A model generated the notes under the pieces. It was not told the DNA's origin. It saw only the letters and a list, made by a program, of their open reading frames with translations, and searched no databases. 64,000 nt of DNA from Psychrobacillus sp. INOP01 (GTDB lineage Bacteria > Bacillota > Bacilli > Bacillales_A > Planococcaceae): NCBI RefSeq assembly GCF_018140925.1, contig NZ_CP073315.1:930001-994000 (forward strand), read 5' to 3'. The position numbers and the translations under genes are program-made. Of the stretch, positions 4,553 through 61,992 are shown in pieces. Position 1 is the stretch's first letter. Every line of letters begins with the position of its first letter.

Positions 4553-5998
4553 TTAGTTAACATGAATATTAATTAATTTTAAATCTGTCATTTCTTCAAT
4601 AACATATTTTGGACCTTCTTTTCCAATTCCACTGTCTTTAACCCCACCGTATGGTAAGATATCAACTCGATATGTAGAGGTCTCATTAATATTAACTCCA
4701 CCTACTTGTAGCTTTTTCACTGCTTCCATTGCTACAGATAGATTTTCAGTAAATATACCTGCTTGTAAACCGAACCGAGAATTATTGGCATTTTTAATCG
4801 CTTCATCTATAGTTTTATAAGGAATAATTGTAATGACAGGAGCAAAAACTTCCTCACAAACAATCTTCATCATATGATTTACATTCGTTAAAACAGTAGG
4901 TGCAAAAAGAGCACCAATTCTCTTATCTCCTGTTACAATAGTTGCTCCTTCTTTTACAGCTGCTTCAATCCACTGTTCTGTACGAATTGCTTCATCCTCA
5001 TTAATCATTGGTCCGATATCCGTATCCTCTTCCAGTGGGTCACCAACTTTAATTGTATTCACAATTTTTTTAGCCAGTTCTAAACTTTTTTCATATAAAT
5101 CCTCATGCACATAAAGACGTTGAACCGAAATACAAGCTTGTCCTGCATTTGAAAAGCCTCTGCGAATGCAAGCATCCATTGCATAGTTAAAATCTTTCAC
5201 ATCATGATGAATAATATTTGGCGAATTGCTTCCAAGCTCTAATACGACATGGCGAATACCTGAGTTATTTTTTAAAAATTGCCCAACATCAGGACTTCCC
5301 GTAAAAGTATAGAAGTCAATGCGAGGATCTTTGACTAATTGCTGTCCAATTACACTACCTTTACCATTTACAATATTTAAAAACCCTGCAGGCAGTCCTG
5401 CTTCAAGTAAAGCTTCCCCAATGAATGCAGCAGAAACTGGCGTTGCTTGTGCTGGCTTTAGTACAATTGTATTGCCAGCAGCAATTGCAGGTGCAATTTT
5501 GTGACAAGTTAAATTGAATGGGAAATTAAACGGGGTAATCGCACAAACTACCCCTTTCGGAACACGAATACTAAATGAGACTTTCCCTTCATTTCCTGGC
5601 TGTCCTTCAATCGGCATTCCCTCACCAACAATACGTTTTGCTTCCTCAGCTGAAGCAATGAATGTTTGAATACCCCGGTCTACTTCCTGACGTGCTTCCT
5701 TAATTGGCTTTCCAACTTCTTGTGCAATAGCTAAGCTAATTTCCTCTTTACGACGAGCAAATACCTCTGCTGTTCTCATTAAAATTTCATAGCGCTGTAC
5801 TATGGACAAAGTTTCTTTTTCAAATGTTTCTTTTGCAATGGTGATTGCATCATCAATAGTTTTTCCATCTGCATAAGACACTTTTGCGATAATATTTTTA
5901 TTGTATTTATTTTGAACGTCAAAAGTTTCTGCGCTAAAACACCATTCACCATTTAATAGATTTCCAACTTCCTTTACACTTCTAGCAACTATTTTCAC
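4553..5998 (-). CDS. NAD(P)-dependent aldehyde dehydrogenase (copy 1)
   Basis: ALDH superfamily enzyme, about 481 residues. VVCAITPFNFPFN (cofactor site), VLELGSNSPNIIH (general base Glu) and GQACISVQRLYV (catalytic Cys) are all present. The GTG at 5998 is preferred because AAGAGGTG lies 7-8 bases upstream; a GTG at 6007 is inside that ribosome site. It is closely similar to the aldehyde dehydrogenase at 9165-10610, so the operon carries a paralogous pair. The ELGSNS form of the motif differs from the common ELGG(N/K) form. Substrate unknown; probably a hydroxylated aldehyde. Confidence 0.85.
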   Translation of the reverse strand: MKIVARSVKEVGNLLNGEWCFSAETFDVQNKYNKNIIAKVSYADGKTIDDAITIAKETFEKETLSIVQRYEILMRTAEVFARRKEEISLAIAQEVGKPIKEARQEVDRGIQTFIASAEEAKRIVGEGMPIEGQPGNEGKVSFSIRVPKGVVCAITPFNFPFNLTCHKIAPAIAAGNTIVLKPAQATPVSAAFIGEALLEAGLPAGFLNIVNGKGSVIGQQLVKDPRIDFYTFTGSPDVGQFLKNNSGIRHVVLELGSNSPNIIHHDVKDFNYAMDACIRRGFSNAGQACISVQRLYVHEDLYEKSLELAKKIVNTIKVGDPLEEDTDIGPMINEDEAIRTEQWIEAAVKEGATIVTGDKRIGALFAPTVLTNVNHMMKIVCEEVFAPVITIIPYKTIDEAIKNANNSRFGLQAGIFTENLSVAMEAVKKLQVGGVNINETSTYRVDILPYGGVKDSGIGKEGPKYVIEEMTDLKLINIHVN

Positions 5999-6028
5999 AT
6001 CATTCACCTCTTATCTTATGGTTAGATA

Positions 6029-53792: not shown

Positions 53793-53838
53793 AAAAAGTC
53801 GCTCAACCCCTGATTTTTCGAGAGGGAGCGACTTTTTT
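53793..53838. terminator. Bidirectional terminator at the island edge
   Basis: Arms AAAAAGTCGCTC (53793-53804) and GAGCGACTTTTTT (53826-53838). Runs of A before and T after allow function on both strands. It touches the left att repeat. The rest of 53498-53792 shows nothing recognisable. Confidence 0.75.
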
Positions 53839-53855
53839 ATATGGAGACGGCGGGA
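53837..53855. repeat. Left attachment site of the island (ssrA 3'-end repeat)
   Basis: TTATATGGAGACGGCGGGA is identical to 61874-61892, where it forms the 3' end of the tmRNA-like sequence. Beyond it GAACCCG is shared after three differing bases. Such end-of-ssrA repeats mark tyrosine-recombinase integration. Confidence 0.8.
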
Positions 53856-53928
53856 GTAGAACCCGACTTTTTCATTAACGGCTCAAAACTAGTGTCCACA
53901 CAGCTTTTTTGTACATTATAAAGTTTAC

Positions 53929-54051: not shown

Positions 54052-54456
54052 TTATGTTTTTATTGATACTAAACTCTTCAATAACTTCTTCTTTTGATTT
54101 AACATTTTCATGACATAGCCACCAAGTAGTATAGATGCAAAGCACTGCGCATTAAAAGCTTGTTGCATAAACCACTGCCAACAATTTTCCGATTCATCAT
54201 AGTGATAATCTGACTTCCGGACTTCAAATTCAGCTTCAACAGCAACATCAAATTTTATTTTCATGTCCTGTAAGTCATTAACAGACACAAACTTTACTTC
54301 TATATCTGACAATTCTATGCCGCCAATGTTTCGAACTCTATATAGCCGTAAACCTAAGTCATTGTAGTTATCTGCGGTGTAATCTTGTATGGCGGCAAAC
54401 ATCTCATTATAAAATCTATCTGCCACATAATCCTTAAATGAACGATTGCCTGCCAT
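54052..54456 (-). pseudogene. Truncated ImmA/IrrE-type protein gene
   Basis: Residues 1-92 (NRSFKDYVADRFYNEMFAAI, then LYRVRNIGGIELSDIEVKFV and VEAEFEVRKSDYHYDESENC) look like the intact N-terminal domain of a longer protein common beside LlaJI/BsuMI-type systems. After WQWFM the sequence jumps to what resembles the very end of an ImmA/IrrE peptidase region, and reads out of frame; another frame gives HENVKSKEEVIEEFSINKNI to a TGA near 54030. I infer an internal deletion plus frameshift. A short intact protein cannot be excluded. Confidence 0.5.
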
Positions 54457-54477: not shown

Positions 54478-55935
54478 TTAGAAATAAAGTAACCCTATAT
54501 CCATTTTTTCACTAGATAGATAGTGTGAGTACATCATTTCAGCTGGTAATTGTCTTATTTTGATGCTCTGTAACCCCATAGCATCTAACATTTCCAAACT
54601 GACATATCCCTTGACAATAATTCCTTGTTGTTCAGTTGGCAACAAAAAGCAATTCTGTACATCTTGAATGCCATGGTCATTAACAAACCTTTTAAACGCT
54701 AACTGATAGAGATACTGCTTTGTAATATCTACAATTCCAGGTTGTCCTCGCAGTTTTTTTCCTTGCTCAAGTTGAATGGTATAATACTTGGCATCAAAAA
54801 TGATGAACTGATGTGAGTTATTCACCTTATGGATTGATACAAGGTCTGGAATAAGGGTCTCATTGGCAATCTTTTGAAATTCTGTACCGTCTTGCGTATA
54901 ACCATTCCACTTTGGTTTTTCTATTAGTGAAATGAGTAAATCCTGAGGATTGTATCCATTTGCTAAAGATATAGGGAGTGAGCCGAGCGGAGTCTGCAAT
55001 TGATTGTCTAAAACTTCCGCACACACCTTTTCCCATACCAGATTAAAACTATTTGTACCAAACATAGTGAAACAATCAATATCTACAAGAGTGCTACTAT
55101 GAGCGATATAGGCATATAACGTCTTTAATAACAGTTGCTTTCTTGTATTAAACTGTAAATTTAATTCATTCTGTATTCGATAGAGTATATAATCTGTTTC
55201 TCTAAAATCATCTAGTTCTTCATCAGACACTTCAACCGGTAGTATGTCAAACAAATCCAATAAATCTGCATCTTGTAGTTCTCTTGAGCAAATACTGATA
55301 ATTGATTCGTGGATCCTTTTAAAGTAATCAAAATCATCATTAATACGTTTTTGTGTAAACAGTTCTGGGTAATATGGGCGATTATTGCTGAGATAAGTAA
55401 AGGTCTCATTTATCGTCTTGTCCCACAGTATTTCACCCGAACCATTAGTTTCAATTATATCTTGTGTATTCGTGTAAGCGCCATTTTCATGGTAGTCATT
55501 CAAAAGATAAATCATCACAGAGAGTAGGTTAAATGAATTACCTTCTTCGCTATCATTGTACATCCGAATAATTTGTTCCTTGGAATTATATCTTTCCAGA
55601 ACTTTTATGATTTGCTTTAATTCTGTTTTAGGAGCAACGTTACTTATATATTTCGGATAGCATTTTAAGATGCAATCCAAAACCGTAATGACACCCACAA
55701 ATGTAAAAACATAAAGATGCTCATTTTCTCCAACCTCAACATCGATTACTTCAATATCTTTTTCGATTAGGTCAGACATATCCTTCTGCACATCAGTTGC
55801 TTTTACAGCTTTCAAGACACCGTATTCCTTCAGTTTTTTTATGATAGCAACGGTCTTTTCGGCTGTACAATCAAAAATGTTTCGCAAGTTTTCCTGTGTA
55901 TATCGTTTCTGTTCACGTACAAACTTGGATATCAT
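54478..55935 (-). CDS. LlaJI-family restriction endonuclease subunit (McrC-like)
   Basis: A 485-residue protein of the LlaJI restriction family. The N terminus has a winged-helix-like part (YTQENLRNIFDCTAEKTVAI). The C-terminal nuclease core has PD-(D/E)xK residues in IPDLVSIHKVN and FIIFDAKYYTI. It works with the McrB-like GTPase encoded directly upstream (1-base overlap at 55935). B. subtilis BsuMI uses a similar set of subunits. Cuts DNA lacking the methylation made by the two methyltransferases. Confidence 0.85.
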   Translation of the reverse strand: MISKFVREQKRYTQENLRNIFDCTAEKTVAIIKKLKEYGVLKAVKATDVQKDMSDLIEKDIEVIDVEVGENEHLYVFTFVGVITVLDCILKCYPKYISNVAPKTELKQIIKVLERYNSKEQIIRMYNDSEEGNSFNLLSVMIYLLNDYHENGAYTNTQDIIETNGSGEILWDKTINETFTYLSNNRPYYPELFTQKRINDDFDYFKRIHESIISICSRELQDADLLDLFDILPVEVSDEELDDFRETDYILYRIQNELNLQFNTRKQLLLKTLYAYIAHSSTLVDIDCFTMFGTNSFNLVWEKVCAEVLDNQLQTPLGSLPISLANGYNPQDLLISLIEKPKWNGYTQDGTEFQKIANETLIPDLVSIHKVNNSHQFIIFDAKYYTIQLEQGKKLRGQPGIVDITKQYLYQLAFKRFVNDHGIQDVQNCFLLPTEQQGIIVKGYVSLEMLDAMGLQSIKIRQLPAEMMYSHYLSSEKMDIGLLYF

Positions 55936-57986
55936 TATTTATACTCCTCTGCAGATTCAGCAACTCCTGCTATAGCCATAGCCCTTGGAAACTTGTCCCT
56001 AATCTCCTTACAGAAAATTTCTACACCACGCTTATCAAATTCCTCGCAAATAGAGGAATATTTCGTTGCGTCCTTACATCCATCAAATAGAGATGCCCTT
56101 TTCTGTTTTGCAGCATCATCAAATAAATACATTAGAACTTTACTCTTGAAGGCAGAAATAAAGATATCAGCGTTAATTTTATTACCTGAACTTGGAACTA
56201 CGATTTTTCTTGAAAGGAAATAAGGTCCTAATAGCTTATCCTCATTAATTTTATAAGAAGAAAGTGTATTATTGATTGCCTTACGCAGTTCATTCCATTC
56301 TATCTCACGATGATAGACCTCGCTACCCATAGTAACAAAGTTCCCCTTAATGTCATTCTCATTATGATTTATACCAAGATAGTCAAAATTCCATCTACGT
56401 TTGAACGCAGTATCCATAGGGTATACGCCTTGGTCAGCACTATTCATAGTTGCCCATATAAACATATTATCTGGAATTTTGATTTCAGAATACTCTTGTG
56501 GCTTACCACCTAATTCCTTAGCAAGGTACTTTTTAATATCTTCAGATGTTTGGATAGCATATTCACTAACATTATCGTCATCACGGTCTAACAACTGGAA
56601 TACATCACCAAATACGGCTGCAACGTTTGCTCTGTTGATTTCTTCAACAATTAATAAATATGGCTTAGGATTATCTGTCTGAGCATTTTTAAGTGCTTTA
56701 ACATACGTCCTCATAAATGGGCCAGGGACGTATTCATATGTAATTTCACTAGCAGACTTTTTATTTGAAATCAGATTTACATATGGCCTAATCGCACGAC
56801 CATGATTTCGTTCAACGCTATTATCACCACTAGCATCAGAGCCATCTTTTTTCTTAGTTTTAAACTTGTCATCATTATATAATCCCAGTAAAAGTGGCAG
56901 GCGAGTTAAATCGCCCTCTTTAAACTTGTCATATAGCAAATCATATTTTTCTTGGGCCGTCTTATCATCCAATAGAACAGATAAAACCCCCTTCTCATCT
57001 TCGCTTACAATGAGATCATTTACAGGATCCAACATCGTAGGCTTGTAAGTTCCCACAAAGTTTGCATACGAATAGTCGGGATGGAAAGTCACACGCCCAT
57101 ACTCACCACCATTTTTAAGCAAGGTATCCTTATCTCGATTTAGATCATAACTTTTACCTGTTCCTGGAGCACCAAAGATAATTCTATTACGGTGGAAATC
57201 TGATTTGATACTTGTCTTGTAAATACTCTGCACTGGGTGCACAAGCAAGTCATCGTCGACAATAGGTTCAGCAACGTCCATATCGATATTGTATATTTTC
57301 AAATTTTTCAGGCGAGTTTCGTACTTGCGAAGTATTTCCGGTTTAATAATTATATGTTTACCACCCGATTTGTCAGCGTCTTCATCCAAGAATCCCCAAC
57401 GCATCAGTATCATAATTGGCTTACAATCTGCATATCTATTAGCCTCTTCACTCAATGTAATAGGACCTTGATTTCTTAGTTCCCTTAATTCAGCTAAAGT
57501 ATCTGTATAGTTACCGCCTACATCTTCGAGTTTCCAAAGTAAAAATGCAAATTCCCTATATGTCAAATAACCCAAATCCATTATAGCTCTAATATACAGT
57601 GCAGGAGGTTCCACATCAGAGTTACTTTCAGGACAGCCATAGTTGTGCCGACCAAACCTCACAGTTTCTAATGCATTCATTAATACTTCTTGTATTTTAT
57701 CAGTATTACTTTCTGTTATTGCTTCATACATTTTCTTACCGGATTCAGTAATCCTTCTTCTTGACTGAGGGTTATTAATATCTTCCCAGACTGTAAAGCC
57801 AAAGTAAGATGTAATCTGGGCCTTTTTAGTATAAGAAGATTGGTATTGATCAGACCCAATCATTGCCTTTAAATGTTCTTTATATATGGCATTTGTCAAC
57901 CAATCGTTAGCTTCATGGTATATGTGCAAAACTGATTCAATTTCGTTCAACAGTGCACTATTTTTTGGCATCACTATCTTTCCCAT
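55935..57986 (-). CDS. McrB-like AAA+ GTPase restriction subunit
   Basis: A 683-residue protein from ATG 57986 (AAGGAGGA 6 bases upstream). Residues 1-250 form a DNA-binding or specificity region; the AAA+ domain starts at RIIFGAPGTGKSYDLNRD (Walker A). LLIVEEINRANVAAVFGDVF is the McrB-type Walker B with EINRAN, and ATMNSADQGVYPMDTAFKRR supplies sensor 1 and the GTP-specific region. Drives translocation for the nuclease subunit. Same gene order as LlaJI R1/R2. Confidence 0.88.
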   Translation of the reverse strand: MGKIVMPKNSALLNEIESVLHIYHEANDWLTNAIYKEHLKAMIGSDQYQSSYTKKAQITSYFGFTVWEDINNPQSRRRITESGKKMYEAITESNTDKIQEVLMNALETVRFGRHNYGCPESNSDVEPPALYIRAIMDLGYLTYREFAFLLWKLEDVGGNYTDTLAELRELRNQGPITLSEEANRYADCKPIMILMRWGFLDEDADKSGGKHIIIKPEILRKYETRLKNLKIYNIDMDVAEPIVDDDLLVHPVQSIYKTSIKSDFHRNRIIFGAPGTGKSYDLNRDKDTLLKNGGEYGRVTFHPDYSYANFVGTYKPTMLDPVNDLIVSEDEKGVLSVLLDDKTAQEKYDLLYDKFKEGDLTRLPLLLGLYNDDKFKTKKKDGSDASGDNSVERNHGRAIRPYVNLISNKKSASEITYEYVPGPFMRTYVKALKNAQTDNPKPYLLIVEEINRANVAAVFGDVFQLLDRDDDNVSEYAIQTSEDIKKYLAKELGGKPQEYSEIKIPDNMFIWATMNSADQGVYPMDTAFKRRWNFDYLGINHNENDIKGNFVTMGSEVYHREIEWNELRKAINNTLSSYKINEDKLLGPYFLSRKIVVPSSGNKINADIFISAFKSKVLMYLFDDAAKQKRASLFDGCKDATKYSSICEEFDKRGVEIFCKEIRDKFPRAMAIAGVAESAEEYK

Positions 57987-57997
57987 CAATATCCTCC

Positions 57998-59137
57998 TTA
58001 TAATTGCTGAATTAATGCTTTCATGATTTCTTTGATAAGTTTTGAAGGTATGCCCTCACCAATCGCCCTTCTAATAAAAGTTTCATTAGGCCAATCTGGA
58101 ATTGGCCAATCAAGAGGCAAAGACATAACAATTAACAGCTCATATATAGATAAAACTCTGGCATCAGAGTATAAATCTTCACCTGATTCATTCTGGTACA
58201 ATCGCCCTGGATGAACACAAGCTAAAGATGAGATAACGCCATTATTCTGTATGATAGTTCTACAAGGCATGTCCCATTTCAATCTACGATAATGATTATG
58301 ATGAGCTTTAACAGGAACACCATCTGCCTTTTGTGGATAGTAAACATCATTGTAAATAGCCGATTTCCCTGTAGGTGTATGCATCATCCATTCCACTTGT
58401 TTCCACGAATGGGTTGGTGGAAAATGCCACTTCGATATCTCAAGTGCTTCTTTTCGCTTACTTTCATAATTCGGAAATTTTTCTAAAGTAAATTCTACCC
58501 CCTCTCTTAGTTTAGGGTCAAGAGAAGGCAAGTTTCCAATGGCTTCAAAAAGAGTGATTTCCTTCTGCTTTTCTGGAAACTCCCAAACATATGGTAGGTC
58601 GTTTCTGACAAGCAAGAATATATTCCTTTCTCTTAATTGGGGTACACCATAATCCTTTGCCATAACAAGTGTGTCCTTATTAAAACGATAGCTGTCTCCA
58701 AGTTCCTTTTTTATATATTCTGGAATCAAGATAATCTCATCACCGTATTTAATACGAGTAGTCAATTGTCTTGGGACATTTTCTAATAATACAAACTTCG
58801 GTTTAACCCTTTTGATTACATCAATTGCATACGAAATAAGCTGATTACGTGGATCAAATTCTAATCTTAATCCAGCCTCACTCATTCCTTGACATGGTGG
58901 TGTGGCTATTAAGAAGTCCACATTTTTTTCAATAGCTTCTTCTACAAGAGAACTCCGGATGCTATCGTCCGTAATGTCTCCGCAAATCATATGTGTATCT
59001 TTATATACATCTTGATAAAATCTAGCTCTATCTTCATCTATCTCATTTGCAATTTTTATTTCAATATCTAGTTCATCCATGTAAGCTTCTGCAATTCCAA
59101 CATTAGCAAACAATGAAATACCATTTAACTTTCCCAT
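57998..59137 (-). CDS. DNA (cytosine-5-)-methyltransferase, R-M subunit B
   Basis: A 379-residue m5C methyltransferase. Motif I LFANVGIAEAY, motif IV TPPCQGMSEAG (catalytic Cys), motif VI LLENVP, motif VIII PQLRERN, and the C-terminal motif X region RRAIGEGIPSKLIKEI. Paralogue of the enzyme encoded next at 59150. In asymmetric-site systems such as LlaJI each enzyme methylates one strand. AGGAGA ribosome site before ATG 59137. Confidence 0.9.
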   Translation of the reverse strand: MGKLNGISLFANVGIAEAYMDELDIEIKIANEIDEDRARFYQDVYKDTHMICGDITDDSIRSSLVEEAIEKNVDFLIATPPCQGMSEAGLRLEFDPRNQLISYAIDVIKRVKPKFVLLENVPRQLTTRIKYGDEIILIPEYIKKELGDSYRFNKDTLVMAKDYGVPQLRERNIFLLVRNDLPYVWEFPEKQKEITLFEAIGNLPSLDPKLREGVEFTLEKFPNYESKRKEALEISKWHFPPTHSWKQVEWMMHTPTGKSAIYNDVYYPQKADGVPVKAHHNHYRRLKWDMPCRTIIQNNGVISSLACVHPGRLYQNESGEDLYSDARVLSIYELLIVMSLPLDWPIPDWPNETFIRRAIGEGIPSKLIKEIMKALIQQL

Positions 59138-59149
59138 TGATTTAATCTC

Positions 59150-60556
59150 CTAGTTAATATTTTCAAATACTCTTTTCACAAATAGTGGTGGTATCCCTTC
59201 GCCAATTATTCTTCGTAAAAAAGCTTCTGATGTATTTTCTGGTACAGGCCAACTTTCTGGCAAACTCATAACAATCAGTAACTCATAAAGAGTCAAAGTT
59301 CTTGCATCCGAATATATTTCTTCTCCATTATCATCTACATATTCTAATCTTCCTGGATGAACATTGTTTTGTGATGAGATTTTCCGATTATCCATAGTTA
59401 CGGTATAAGCGGCTGTATTCCATTTTTGTCTTTTATAGGTGTTGCGAAAACCTTTTACAGCTTCTCCATCGGCTTTCTTGGGATAAAAAACCGTATTATC
59501 AAATGCTGTACAGCCGGTACGGGTATGTTGCATTGCTATGACCTGCCTCTTTACATGATGGGGAGGAACATGCCATTTTGAAATATTAGCCGCAACTTCC
59601 TGCCGCTCATAAAAATGAGGAAAGATTTCTAACAACTCATCTTCTGAGACATCTTTTATATAAGGATCTAATTTAGGTAAATCCCCAATCGCATCTTGCA
59701 TAGTAACAATTTTTGAATCTTTCTTTGGAAGGCCCCATTCTTTTATATCCTCTGTTCTGCGGGTCATTAAAATAATTGCCCGTTCTCGTGTCTGTGGAAC
59801 TGAGTAATCCTTTGTATCGATAATATCTTGTGAAATCTTATATTCAGATCCCAACTCTTTTTCTAGTAAATTAGGAATTAAAACTTGCTCGCCATTTACT
59901 TCTATACTGGTATTTAAAAACATGGGGACATTTTCTAAAAATACGTATTGGGGTCTAATCTCTTTAACTGCCTCAATCACAGGGATAATAAGTTTGTTTC
60001 TTTCATCGTTTTCTTCTTGCTGTCCAGCGGTACTCATTCCTTGGCATGGAGGTGTCGCCATTATAATATTAACACCAGCTTTTCTACTTTCTTTGACTAT
60101 GTCGTCAAATACATTTTTTTTAGTGATATCCCCACAAATCATGTGAGTATCAGGATAAATTTTTGAATATAATTTAGCCCGTCGTTCTACAAGTTCATTA
60201 GCAACGGAAACCTCTATGCCCATATCTTCAAAATAAGACTCTGCTACACCAATATTTGAAAACAACGATAGTACTTTCATATTACTTCCTTTCGAAGTTA
60301 CAGATGCCATTACAGAATCTTGTTTTATATAATCGAAATAAAGCTTCACAGATTTTTTTATTTGTGAGCGCACGGAAACAGATAGGGCTTGATAAGCCAA
60401 TTCTTGTTCCAGCCGAAACTGATAAACAATGTCATTAAACCAAGGCAAAATATTATCTGCCCTTTTCATTCTTGAAACCGTATCGCTTATCGTTTCTTTA
60501 CAATAATCCTTATTTGCCGCCAACCACATCTTAAATCCATTTAAATTTAAACCCAT
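59150..60556 (-). CDS. DNA (cytosine-5-)-methyltransferase, R-M subunit A
   Basis: A 468-residue m5C methyltransferase with an extra N-terminal helical domain of about 110 residues (FKMWLAANKDYCKETISDTV) before motif I VLSLFSNIGVAESYF. Motif IV ATPPCQGMSTAG, motif VI FLENVP, motif VIII PQTRERA and motif X RRIIGEGIPPLFVKRV are present. First gene of the R-M operon; its promoter contains two inverted GACGC sites, so methylation by this or its partner enzyme may control the operon. Confidence 0.9.
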   Translation of the reverse strand: MGLNLNGFKMWLAANKDYCKETISDTVSRMKRADNILPWFNDIVYQFRLEQELAYQALSVSVRSQIKKSVKLYFDYIKQDSVMASVTSKGSNMKVLSLFSNIGVAESYFEDMGIEVSVANELVERRAKLYSKIYPDTHMICGDITKKNVFDDIVKESRKAGVNIIMATPPCQGMSTAGQQEENDERNKLIIPVIEAVKEIRPQYVFLENVPMFLNTSIEVNGEQVLIPNLLEKELGSEYKISQDIIDTKDYSVPQTRERAIILMTRRTEDIKEWGLPKKDSKIVTMQDAIGDLPKLDPYIKDVSEDELLEIFPHFYERQEVAANISKWHVPPHHVKRQVIAMQHTRTGCTAFDNTVFYPKKADGEAVKGFRNTYKRQKWNTAAYTVTMDNRKISSQNNVHPGRLEYVDDNGEEIYSDARTLTLYELLIVMSLPESWPVPENTSEAFLRRIIGEGIPPLFVKRVFENIN

Positions 60557-60601: not shown

Positions 60602-60644
60602 ATTATACTCAACTCGAATGTAGGCGTCAAGTTTTTGACGCCTA
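60602..60644 (-). promoter_or_regulatory. R-M operon promoter overlapped by inverted GACGC sites
   Basis: Minus strand TTGACG (60625-60630), 17-base spacer, TATAAT (60602-60607). The -35 lies inside a 10-bp inverted repeat: TAGGCGTCAA (60621-60630) and TTGACGCCTA (60635-60644). Each arm contains GACGC/GCGTC, the recognition sequence of LlaJI. The LlaJI operon is known to be controlled by methylation of such sites in its promoter. Confidence 0.8.
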
Positions 60645-60875: not shown

Positions 60876-61745
60876 ATGCTCCCTAACCATATTTTGCCTG
60901 CAATGGGTGACTATAAAATTGAGAAAATCAATATTGATGTTTGTCAAAAACATGTCGATGAATGGGCATTAAAGCTGAAGAAATTTCGCATGGTAAAAGC
61001 ATACGCAGCTAAGGTACTTGATTTTGCGATTAAACGAGGATATCTACAAACTAATCCTTTTGCCTATGTAAACATGCCAGCAACTGCTAAGAAAGAAATT
61101 GTAACCGATGAAGAAGTAGAAAACTTCTATACTCGTGAACAACTAATAGAATTTTTATCATGCCTAGAAAAAGAAAGTAACTACAAAGCATACGTCCTAT
61201 TTCATTTACTTGCTTTTAGTTGTATGCGTAAAGGTGAAGCACTTGCACTTACTTGGAATGACCTTAACTTCAAGACAAATGAAATTCGTATTAATAAGGG
61301 CATTGCAAGAGGTAAAGATAATAAGTTATATGTAAAGTCTACAAAAACTGGTACTGTACGTACAATCAAAATGGATGATAAAACGATGGCAATATTAAAA
61401 GATTGGAAGAAAAAGCAGAAACAGGATTATTTAGCGCTAGGTTACAATACAATGCAGCCAAAACAGCTTGTATTTAGTAATGATAAAAATGAGTATCTAC
61501 AACCTACAAAAACTCGAAAATGGATTTTACATGTGCAGGAAAAATATAATCTTGGCACTATCACTACACACGGCTTGCGACATACACATTGTTCGTTGTT
61601 ATTTGAAGCTGGGGCTAGTTTAAAGGAAGTCCAAGAGCGTTTAGGTCATAGCGATGTACAAACAACTATGAACATTTATACTCATGTCACTAAGAAGGCA
61701 AAAGAAGAAGCAATCAATAAATTTGCTACCTTCATGAGCATCTAA
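60876..61745 (+). CDS. int: Tyrosine recombinase (integrase), N-terminally truncated
   Basis: A 289-residue phage-type integrase. The core-binding domain starts abruptly at NHILPAMGDYKIEKINIDVC; the arm-binding N-terminal domain (usually 60-90 residues) is missing, and a TAG stands in frame at 60846. The catalytic set is complete: Arg in SCMRKGEALAL, Lys in VKSTKTGTVRT, His-x-x-Arg in THGLRHTH, His in LGHSD and Tyr in MNIYTHV. It points at the right att site about 130 bases downstream. Probably unable to recognise arm sites, so the island is likely stranded. Confidence 0.85.
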   Translation: MLPNHILPAMGDYKIEKINIDVCQKHVDEWALKLKKFRMVKAYAAKVLDFAIKRGYLQTNPFAYVNMPATAKKEIVTDEEVENFYTREQLIEFLSCLEKESNYKAYVLFHLLAFSCMRKGEALALTWNDLNFKTNEIRINKGIARGKDNKLYVKSTKTGTVRTIKMDDKTMAILKDWKKKQKQDYLALGYNTMQPKQLVFSNDKNEYLQPTKTRKWILHVQEKYNLGTITTHGLRHTHCSLLFEAGASLKEVQERLGHSDVQTTMNIYTHVTKKAKEEAINKFATFMSI

Positions 61746-61873: not shown

Positions 61874-61892
61874 TTATATGGAGACGGCGGGA
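61874..61892. repeat. Right attachment site of the island
   Basis: TTATATGGAGACGGCGGGA, identical to 53837-53855, coinciding with the acceptor and T-stem end of the tmRNA-like sequence. Confidence 0.8.
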
Positions 61893-61992
61893 TTTGAACC
61901 CGCGTCCAGAAACTCTAACACTTAAGCTTCTACGCGTGTATCTTGCCTATTTAGGTTTCGCGTAGCACTATGCCGACATTAGAGTCCCAACG
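61879..61992 (-). ncRNA. ssrA: 3' part of transfer-messenger RNA (ssrA), partial
   Basis: On the minus strand GCGTAGAAGCTTAAGTGTTA, then GTTTCTGGACGCGGGTTCAA and ATCCCGCCGTCTCCA, is the classic tmRNA 3' end (helix 2 strand, T arm, acceptor). ACTCTAA (about 61977-61983) can pair with TTAGAGT as a helix-2-like element. The universal 5' part (GGGGACG...GGATTCGACAGG) and the tag-coding region are not found in the window, so this is a 3' fragment, left by integration events, not a full gene. Confidence 0.65.

What the first reader, a model, noticed from the sequence alone, without database searches (positions are those of the whole stretch)
60602..60644. Inverted GACGC pair over the -35 box predicts target site and epigenetic self-control of the R-M system
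The LlaJI system recognises GACGC, has two m5C methyltransferases plus McrB-like and nuclease subunits, and is controlled by methylation of target sites in its own promoter. Here an orphan-looking island has the same four genes, and the promoter carries TAGGCGTCAA/TTGACGCCTA with the -35 TTGACG inside one arm. This predicts from sequence that the system cuts GACGC and uses the same feedback. A conserved promoter architecture across genera would be notable.
Basis: partly seen in the sequence, partly recalled or inferred. Interest (0 to 1): 0.7.

Follow-up and report, generated by a model that had tools for sequence, protein, structure and literature searches.

The report
Self-targeting promoter switch in R-M operon
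A bacterial DNA-defence operon carries two mirrored copies of its own probable target sequence on its promoter, and related defence systems pair this same arrangement with a small DNA-binding-like domain that resembles part of recombinases, which suggests a portable self-regulating switch.

Summary
Window 60621-60644 is a perfect inverted repeat, TAGGCGTCAA-N4-TTGACGCCTA; on the minus strand one arm is the -35 box of a TTGACG-17-TATAAT promoter in front of M1-M2-R1-R2. The LlaJI comparison holds: the pNP40 LlaJI promoter has the same core, GGCGTCAA-N4-TTGACGCC, and spacing, and M1 and M2 are 64% and 74% identical. Six of seven LlaJI-type lineages whose M1 has the N-terminal domain keep the pair; the seventh keeps only the -35 copy. 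GACGC is the probable target; methylation feedback was not tested. And the M1 N-terminal domain, predicted to fold like a tyrosine-recombinase core-binding domain, also occurs C-terminally on HindV-type (GRCGYC) methyltransferases and as small separate proteins, often with an inverted pair of GRCGYC sites on the -35. Over 135 de-duplicated methyltransferase loci an exact pair lies upstream in 9 of 14 with a strong domain hit and 0 of 121 without; relatedness and the way some loci were found inflate this contrast.

The parts
60621..60644 (.). Inverted pair of TTGACGCC (GACGC) arms with a 4-bp spacer; probable operator
   Evidence: same core in pNP40 and in L150, L076, L077, L078
60625..60630 (-). 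-35 box TTGACG, inside one arm
60602..60607 (-). -10 box TATAAT, 17 bp from the -35
59150..60556 (-). M1, C5 methyltransferase, 468 aa; 64% to M1.LlaJI
60281..60556 (-). M1 residues 1-92, N-terminal domain predicted to fold like a tyrosine-recombinase core-binding domain (last residues disordered in the model)
57998..59137 (-). M2, C5 methyltransferase, 379 aa; 74% to M2.LlaJI
55935..57989 (-). R1, McrB-like AAA+ subunit; likely start ATG at 57986
57240..57986 (-). R1 recognition domain, predicted two winged-helix repeats, resembles type IIS recognition domains
54478..55935 (-). R2, nuclease of the RE_LlaJI family; nearest relatives in gut phages

Best explanation
This is the promoter of an LlaJI-type restriction-modification operon that probably modifies and cuts GACGC. 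Shown: two inverted TTGACGCC arms overlap the -35 box, and this layout is conserved in related lineages at a fixed distance from the -10. Inferred: the pair is an operator that M1 binds, through its recombinase-core-binding-like N-terminal domain, its own target-recognition domain, or both, and so blocks RNA polymerase. In a new host the near-consensus promoter is free, and M1 and M2, first in the operon, are made first. While the chromosome still has unmethylated GACGC sites these compete with the promoter for M1; once they are methylated, M1 settles on the operator and expression falls. Methylation of the cytosine inside the -35 box would tune the binding of M1 or of polymerase. Titration and methylation tuning are inference, modelled on what later papers report for LlaJI.
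For: Same core and spacing in pNP40 LlaJI; M1 64%, M2 74% identical. Seven lineages have M1 with the N-domain; six have the pair, and all seven have TTGACG 17 bp from a -10-like hexamer. Of 398 genomes of the class the operator pattern occurs in two, the window's and G588, and both have the operon. M1.LlaJI is reported to repress its own gene (PMC3978073, PMC3695355, passages), and recognition sites in the LlaJI promoter to control transcription (PMC11779793, passage). The domain occurs with inverted self-target pairs in a second methyltransferase family.
Against: Nothing was measured. L079-L081 have the domain but one GACGC only. L166 has a separate domain protein beside a HindV-type methyltransferase and no pair. 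LlaJI-type arms (TTGACGCC) also fit GRCGYC, so a shared operator read by the domain alone is not excluded. The fold match rests on one small helical model whose Z values (8.4 and below) the tool calls ambiguous for helical folds.
Confidence: 0.65

Rival explanations
1. The pair is an operator for the core-binding-like domain alone, which reads TTGACG(C/T)C. Overlap with the methyltransferase target is a constraint or a coincidence, and methylation plays no part in control.
For: The inner part TTGACG is shared by LlaJI-type and HindV-type promoters and by L164, whose methyltransferase is of another family. All LlaJI-type arms also fit GRCGYC.
Against: Arms follow the enzyme: 13 of 13 LlaJI-type arms contain GACGC, while 10 of 16 HindV-type arms are GACGTC, which is no GACGC site (my count; arms of one promoter are not independent). 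Later papers speak of recognition sites in LlaJI control.
Confidence: 0.22
2. Control is by methylation only: m5C in the -35 box changes polymerase binding, and M1 does not act as a bound repressor.
For: The target cytosine lies in the -35. Control by methylation of a promoter target site is known for CfrBI (title of a cited paper seen).
Against: The far arm, which lies outside the promoter hexamers, is kept in six of seven lineages including its outer bases. M1.LlaJI is listed as a repressor of its own gene.
Confidence: 0.1
3. The inverted repeat is not regulatory: a chance palindrome or a terminator of a neighbouring gene.
For: Perfect 10-bp inverted repeats occur at 11 places in this window. 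Of 28 viral contigs with the exact operator pattern, 25 have no LlaJI-type genes.
Against: 0 of 20,000 shuffles give the pair; fixed place on the -35 in related lineages.
Confidence: 0.03

Closest known systems
LlaJI of Lactococcus lactis plasmid pNP40
   Same: Gene order M1-M2-R1-R2, both methyltransferases, the R1 recognition part, and the promoter core with -35 and -10 spacing
   Different: R1 motor (34%) and R2 (23%) are of another lineage; flanks of the operator differ
HindV/BsaHI-type (GRCGYC) systems of enterobacterial plasmids that carry the domain
   Same: Same small domain, at the C-terminus; inverted pair of own target sites on the -35, 17 bp from a -10-like hexamer
   Different: One methyltransferase, divergent restriction gene, other target; regulation not studied in what I saw (PMC2413257, passages)
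SsoII/Ecl18kI-type autoregulated C5 methyltransferases
   Same: A methyltransferase represses its own gene through an added terminal domain (PMC3978073, passage)
   Different: There the regulatory site differs from the methylation site and the domain is predicted HTH; here the pair contains the probable target and the domain model resembles a core-binding domain
McrBC
   Same: AAA+ motor subunit with a partner nuclease
   Different: Orphan and specific for methylated DNA (PMC1459862); here two methyltransferases are in the operon

Membership tests
LlaJI-type restriction-modification system | Operon of two C5 methyltransferases, an McrB-like subunit and a nuclease | tested here: met
LlaJI-type restriction-modification system | R2 belongs to the RE_LlaJI nuclease family | tested here: met
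   PF09563 E 1.6e-52, but only 23% identical to R2.LlaJI
LlaJI-type restriction-modification system | Promoter with inverted GACGC sites on the -35, as seen in pNP40 | tested here: met
LlaJI-type restriction-modification system | Recognises GACGC/GCGTC | not testable with these tools
   Inferred from recognition-domain conservation and the promoter
LlaJI-type restriction-modification system | Expression controlled by methyltransferase and methylation of the promoter | not testable with these tools
   Needs reporter and methylome
H. pylori LlaJI.R1 with an N-terminal B3 domain | B3 fold in the R1 recognition domain | tested here: inconclusive
   Model gives two winged-helix repeats, best N.BspD6I Z 13.2; no B3 row was listed, which excludes nothing
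Tyrosine-recombinase core-binding domains | Fold of M1 residues 1-92 | tested here: inconclusive
   First 11 VIA rows are recombinases or integrases, Z 8.4-5.7; Foldseek E 0.45 at best; no Pfam family over its cut-off
BsuMI | Methyltransferases and target of BsuMI | not tested
   BsuMI sequences were not compared

The most novel reading that the evidence does not exclude
A family of restriction-modification controllers not yet named in anything I saw: a small recombinase-core-binding-like domain that moves between methyltransferase families (N-terminal in LlaJI M1, C-terminal in HindV-type enzymes, or a separate protein). It acts on inverted TTGACG(C/T)C sites that are at once the methyltransferase's own target and the -35 box, so that the promoter senses how many unmethylated target sites remain in the cell.
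Probability: 0.5. Interest if true: 0.75.

Novelty: new variant of a known kind. Interest (0 to 1): 0.6.

Why it matters
It turns what was reported for one system (LlaJI) into a comparative rule that can be tested: where this domain appears, the promoter pair is predicted to be its operator and to contain the methyltransferase's target. If right, it adds a controller type beside C proteins and HTH-fused methyltransferases, and helps to predict targets of uncharacterised systems from promoter DNA. The chimeric R1 suggests that target recognition and the McrBC-like motor with its nuclease are exchanged as modules.

Tried and rejected
Excess of GACGC sites in the window: none. Relaxed operator with -10 in viral contigs: 22 contigs, 3 already known; none of the 19 new ones has LlaJI-type genes in the stretch held. 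The other phylum genome with the operator pattern (G315, L046): no such genes in the 3-kb locus, taken as chance. The M1 protein scan of viral contigs found nothing; the M1 alignment found 68 loci. In 398 phylum genomes M2 (E <= 1e-60) was found in the window's own only. Pfam on the small domain: no family over its cut-off, one weak integrase-SAM row for L030 (E 0.16); PHROGs: nothing convincing. Phage records for the C-terminal domain: no match. Terminator reading: judged unlikely from the fixed place on the -35. For R1-N no B3 row was listed, which excludes nothing.

Results against my reading. L079-L081 have one site only. L166 has a separate domain protein and no pair. L189 and L190 have the two sites in the opposite order (TTGACGCC-N9-GGCGTCAA) ending at the start codon, so the scripted test did not count them. 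In L157 and L159 the far arm is GACGTCTA, not GACGTCAA. L171 has a 3-bp spacer. The -10 is poor in L170 (1 of 6), L164 (3 of 6) and L189/L190 (2 of 6). Weaker domain hits (E above 1e-10: L119, L192, L193, L197, L198, L200-L204) were counted as lacking the domain and have no such pair in the scripts. With one mismatch allowed the counts are 10 of 14 and 3 of 121; the three are L095, L205 and L159, and L159 (Morganella) is a relative whose sibling record shows the domain.

Limits of the association test. Loci came from two methyltransferase-alignment scans (the second listed the best 80 of 154) plus ten others: L006 and L005 by M1 protein, L150 and L151 by M2 protein, L157 and L158 by the domain itself, L159-L162 by a HindV-type protein that carries it. 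Three contigs first seen by operator pattern, and L171 first seen by the domain (as L156), came back in the protein scans and are counted. Leaving out L157-L159, HindV-type enzymes at 50% identity or more give 3 of 6 with the domain and 0 of 19 without. LlaJI-type gives 5 of 6 and 0 of 9; L086 among the nine is cut off before the start of M1, so 0 of 8. The window itself was not counted. Near-duplicates were merged by shared 12-mers; no tree was used, so p-values overstate.

Full report
OBSERVATION. On its minus strand the window reads TTAGGCGTCAAAAACTTGACGCCTACATTCGAGTTGAGTATAAT upstream of an operon of four genes. The inverted repeat 60621-60644 is perfect over 10-bp arms. TTGACGC-N16-TATAAT occurs once in the 4.30-Mb genome. 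GCGTC-N8-GACGC appeared in 0 of 20,000 shuffles of the upstream 300 bp.

GENES. M1 and M2 are C5 methyltransferases, R1 has an AAA domain and matches McrB structures, R2 is an RE_LlaJI nuclease. Against pNP40 LlaJI (L006): M1 64%, M2 74%, R1 N-terminal 340 residues 36%, R1 motor 34%, R2 23%. R2 matches six phage records, four of them at 62-67% identity; in L008-L010 the R1 motor is about 68% identical too, while the methyltransferases are distant. The viral contig L078 combines LlaJI-type M1 and M2 with this kind of motor and R2 (53% and 62%). The closest methyltransferases I found (L150: M1 74%, M2 81%) go with an R1 (52% to R1.LlaJI) and R2 (55%) of the pNP40 kind. So the window's R1 looks put together from two sources near residue 250; this is inference.

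PROMOTER ACROSS LINEAGES. pNP40 has GGCGTCAA-ATTC-TTGACGCC with TTGACG-17-TAGAAT. The exact operator pattern was found in 28 viral contigs; 3 of 28 carry LlaJI-type genes (L029, L030, L042), and in all three it lies directly upstream of M1. A scan with the M1 alignment, which does not use the operator, gave 68 loci, among them the same three contigs (as L077, L076, L078) and L079-L081. In all I know seven lineages of LlaJI-type M1 with the N-domain: window, pNP40 (with pLLNCDO702C), L150, L076, L077, L078, L079-L081. Six of seven have the pair with a 4-bp spacer; L079-L081 keep only the -35 copy. In all seven TTGACG is 17 bp from a -10-like hexamer. Flanks differ; perfect arms run from 8 bp (L078) to at least 24 bp (pNP40), so TTGACGCC is the shared arm. 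In 398 genomes of the class M2 at E <= 1e-60 was found in three and the operator pattern in two, the window's and G588; G749, the third, has neither the N-domain nor the pair.

RELATIVES WITHOUT THE DOMAIN. L082 has M1 fused to a ribbon-helix-helix-like segment and L083 a separate small gene of that look; both promoters have three direct TGGCGT repeats (Pfam support is weak). L005 has an XRE-type gene upstream, and its R1 recognition part is fused to HNH. L084, L085 and L089 have small XRE-type genes upstream; L084 and L151 have a PLD-helicase protein after M2. In the scripted test none of the nine LlaJI-type loci without the domain has the inverted pair, L086 being cut off. By eye, the core of the recognition domains is kept in the lineages with the same R1 recognition part and altered in L084, L085, L087, L089 and L151.

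THE N-TERMINAL DOMAIN. An alignment of six sequences gave an all-helical AlphaFold2 model, pLDDT 88, pTM 0.78. Foldseek's first five rows are XerA chains (E 0.45-0.80, probability 0.97-0.99). VIA-align's first 11 rows are all recombinases or integrases, Z 8.4 to 5.7, 76-87 residues aligned; row 12 is a retroviral matrix protein at 5.6. The tool warns that such Z values can be chance for helical folds, so the match is suggestive.

THE SAME DOMAIN ELSEWHERE. The domain alone matched 37 plasmid records at E <= 10. Those with E <= 0.003 are five Lactococcus, one Citrobacter, one Morganella and twenty Escherichia or Salmonella records that look near-identical. In the enterobacterial ones it is the C-terminus of HindV-type methyltransferases. 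Specificity GRCGYC is documented for BsaHI, HgiDI and HgiGI, and HindV is a putative member of that group (PMC2413257, passages). Their promoters read GACGTCAA-TTTA-TTGACGTC (E. coli plasmid L158), GACGTCTA-TTTG-TTGACGTC (Citrobacter L157), GACGTCTA-TTTA-TTGACGTC (Morganella L159) and GGCGTCAA-TAA-TTGACGTC (viral contig L156/L171), each with TTGACG 17 bp from a -10-like hexamer (4 or 5 of 6). In L169 and L170 the domain is a separate protein just downstream of a HindV-type methyltransferase, with the pair. In L164 it is a separate protein upstream of a methyltransferase of another look, with the pair. HindV-type Calothrix and Rhizobium plasmid enzymes, whose match stops before the domain, have no such pair on a promoter-like site.

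ASSOCIATION TEST. Of 158 methyltransferase loci, 135 remained after merging near-duplicates. An exact CGTCAA/TTGACG inverted pair lies upstream in 9 of 14 with a strong domain hit (E < 1e-10) and 0 of 121 without. HindV-type at 50% identity or more: 4 of 8 against 0 of 20 (p = 0.003). LlaJI-type: 5 of 6 against 0 of 9 (p = 0.002). These p-values ignore relatedness, and some loci were found through the domain; see Tried and rejected for the reduced counts. Among promoters that have sites, 13 of 13 LlaJI-type arms contain GACGC, and 16 of 16 HindV-type arms fit GRCGYC, 10 of them GACGTC (my count). But TTGACGCC fits both targets, so only the HindV-type GACGTC arms separate the families.

R1 RECOGNITION DOMAIN. 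The model (pLDDT 84) has two winged-helix-like repeats. VIA-align gives N.BspD6I Z 13.2 over 206-210 residues, BpuJI recognition domain 11.3 and FokI 11.0; many single winged-helix proteins score 9.5-11.4 over about 80 residues. Foldseek's best E is 6.8e-4 for BpuJI. Papers give a B3 domain for the H. pylori LlaJI.R1 (PMC7680126 and PMC12707154, passages). The pNP40 kind, homologous to the window's, may thus use a type IIS-like recognition domain; this is a prediction.

LITERATURE. The primary paper on LlaJI control (O'Driscoll 2005, Mol Microbiol 57:1532), the 2004 LlaJI paper and the H. pylori structure paper were not held. What I say of them comes from other papers. I saw part 1 of 6 and passages of PMC1459862, passages of PMC11779793, PMC12707154, PMC3695355, PMC3978073, PMC3990576, PMC7680126 and PMC2413257, and mainly reference-list lines of PMC3695507, PMC3874152 and PMC6237814. 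I saw no description of the domain or of its sharing with HindV-type systems; searches were made, in an open-access library that lacks most subscription papers. The 2005 paper may well treat the pNP40 pair and the M1 N-terminus, so I claim no novelty for those.

VERDICT. The promoter architecture is real and conserved, and GACGC is the likely target. The feedback is plausible by homology and untested. The new element is the portable domain and its co-occurrence with inverted self-target pairs in a second methyltransferase family.

Noticed in passing
window 53837-53865, 61874-61902 and 60876-61745; G000:C1:998073-998427: A 29-bp repeat (93%) like the 3' end of tmRNA flanks the 8-kb R-M island, beside an integrase that seems to lack its N-terminal part; the intact tmRNA lies 6 kb further on, so islands seem stacked at ssrA.
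   Followed up: partly
window 54052-54456: A 134-aa protein after R2 has relatives near R2 in gut phages L008 and L009 (about 41% over 96 aa) and in viral contigs L119, L126, L127 (58%) and L129; it may belong to the phage-type nuclease module.
   Followed up: no
L082 6968-8266 and L083 about 5780-6020: Relatives replace the M1 N-domain by a ribbon-helix-helix-like segment, fused or separate, and their promoters have three direct TGGCGT repeats instead of the inverted pair.
   Followed up: partly
L005 7859-9082: The R1-type recognition domain is fused to an HNH nuclease, a third kind of nuclease attached to the same recognition part.
   Followed up: partly
L017, L018, L023-L025, L031-L034, L036, L038, L040: A group of viral contigs shares the palindrome GGGCGTCAA-N4-TTGACGCCC with conserved flanks and no LlaJI-type gene in the stretches held; looks like an unrelated conserved element.
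   Followed up: no
L119 6850-7000 and 8283-8627: Two methyltransferases with a weakly matching separate domain protein; the promoter has CACGTCAAC and GTTGACGTG arms around a TATAAT, perhaps a variant operator with another target.
   Followed up: no
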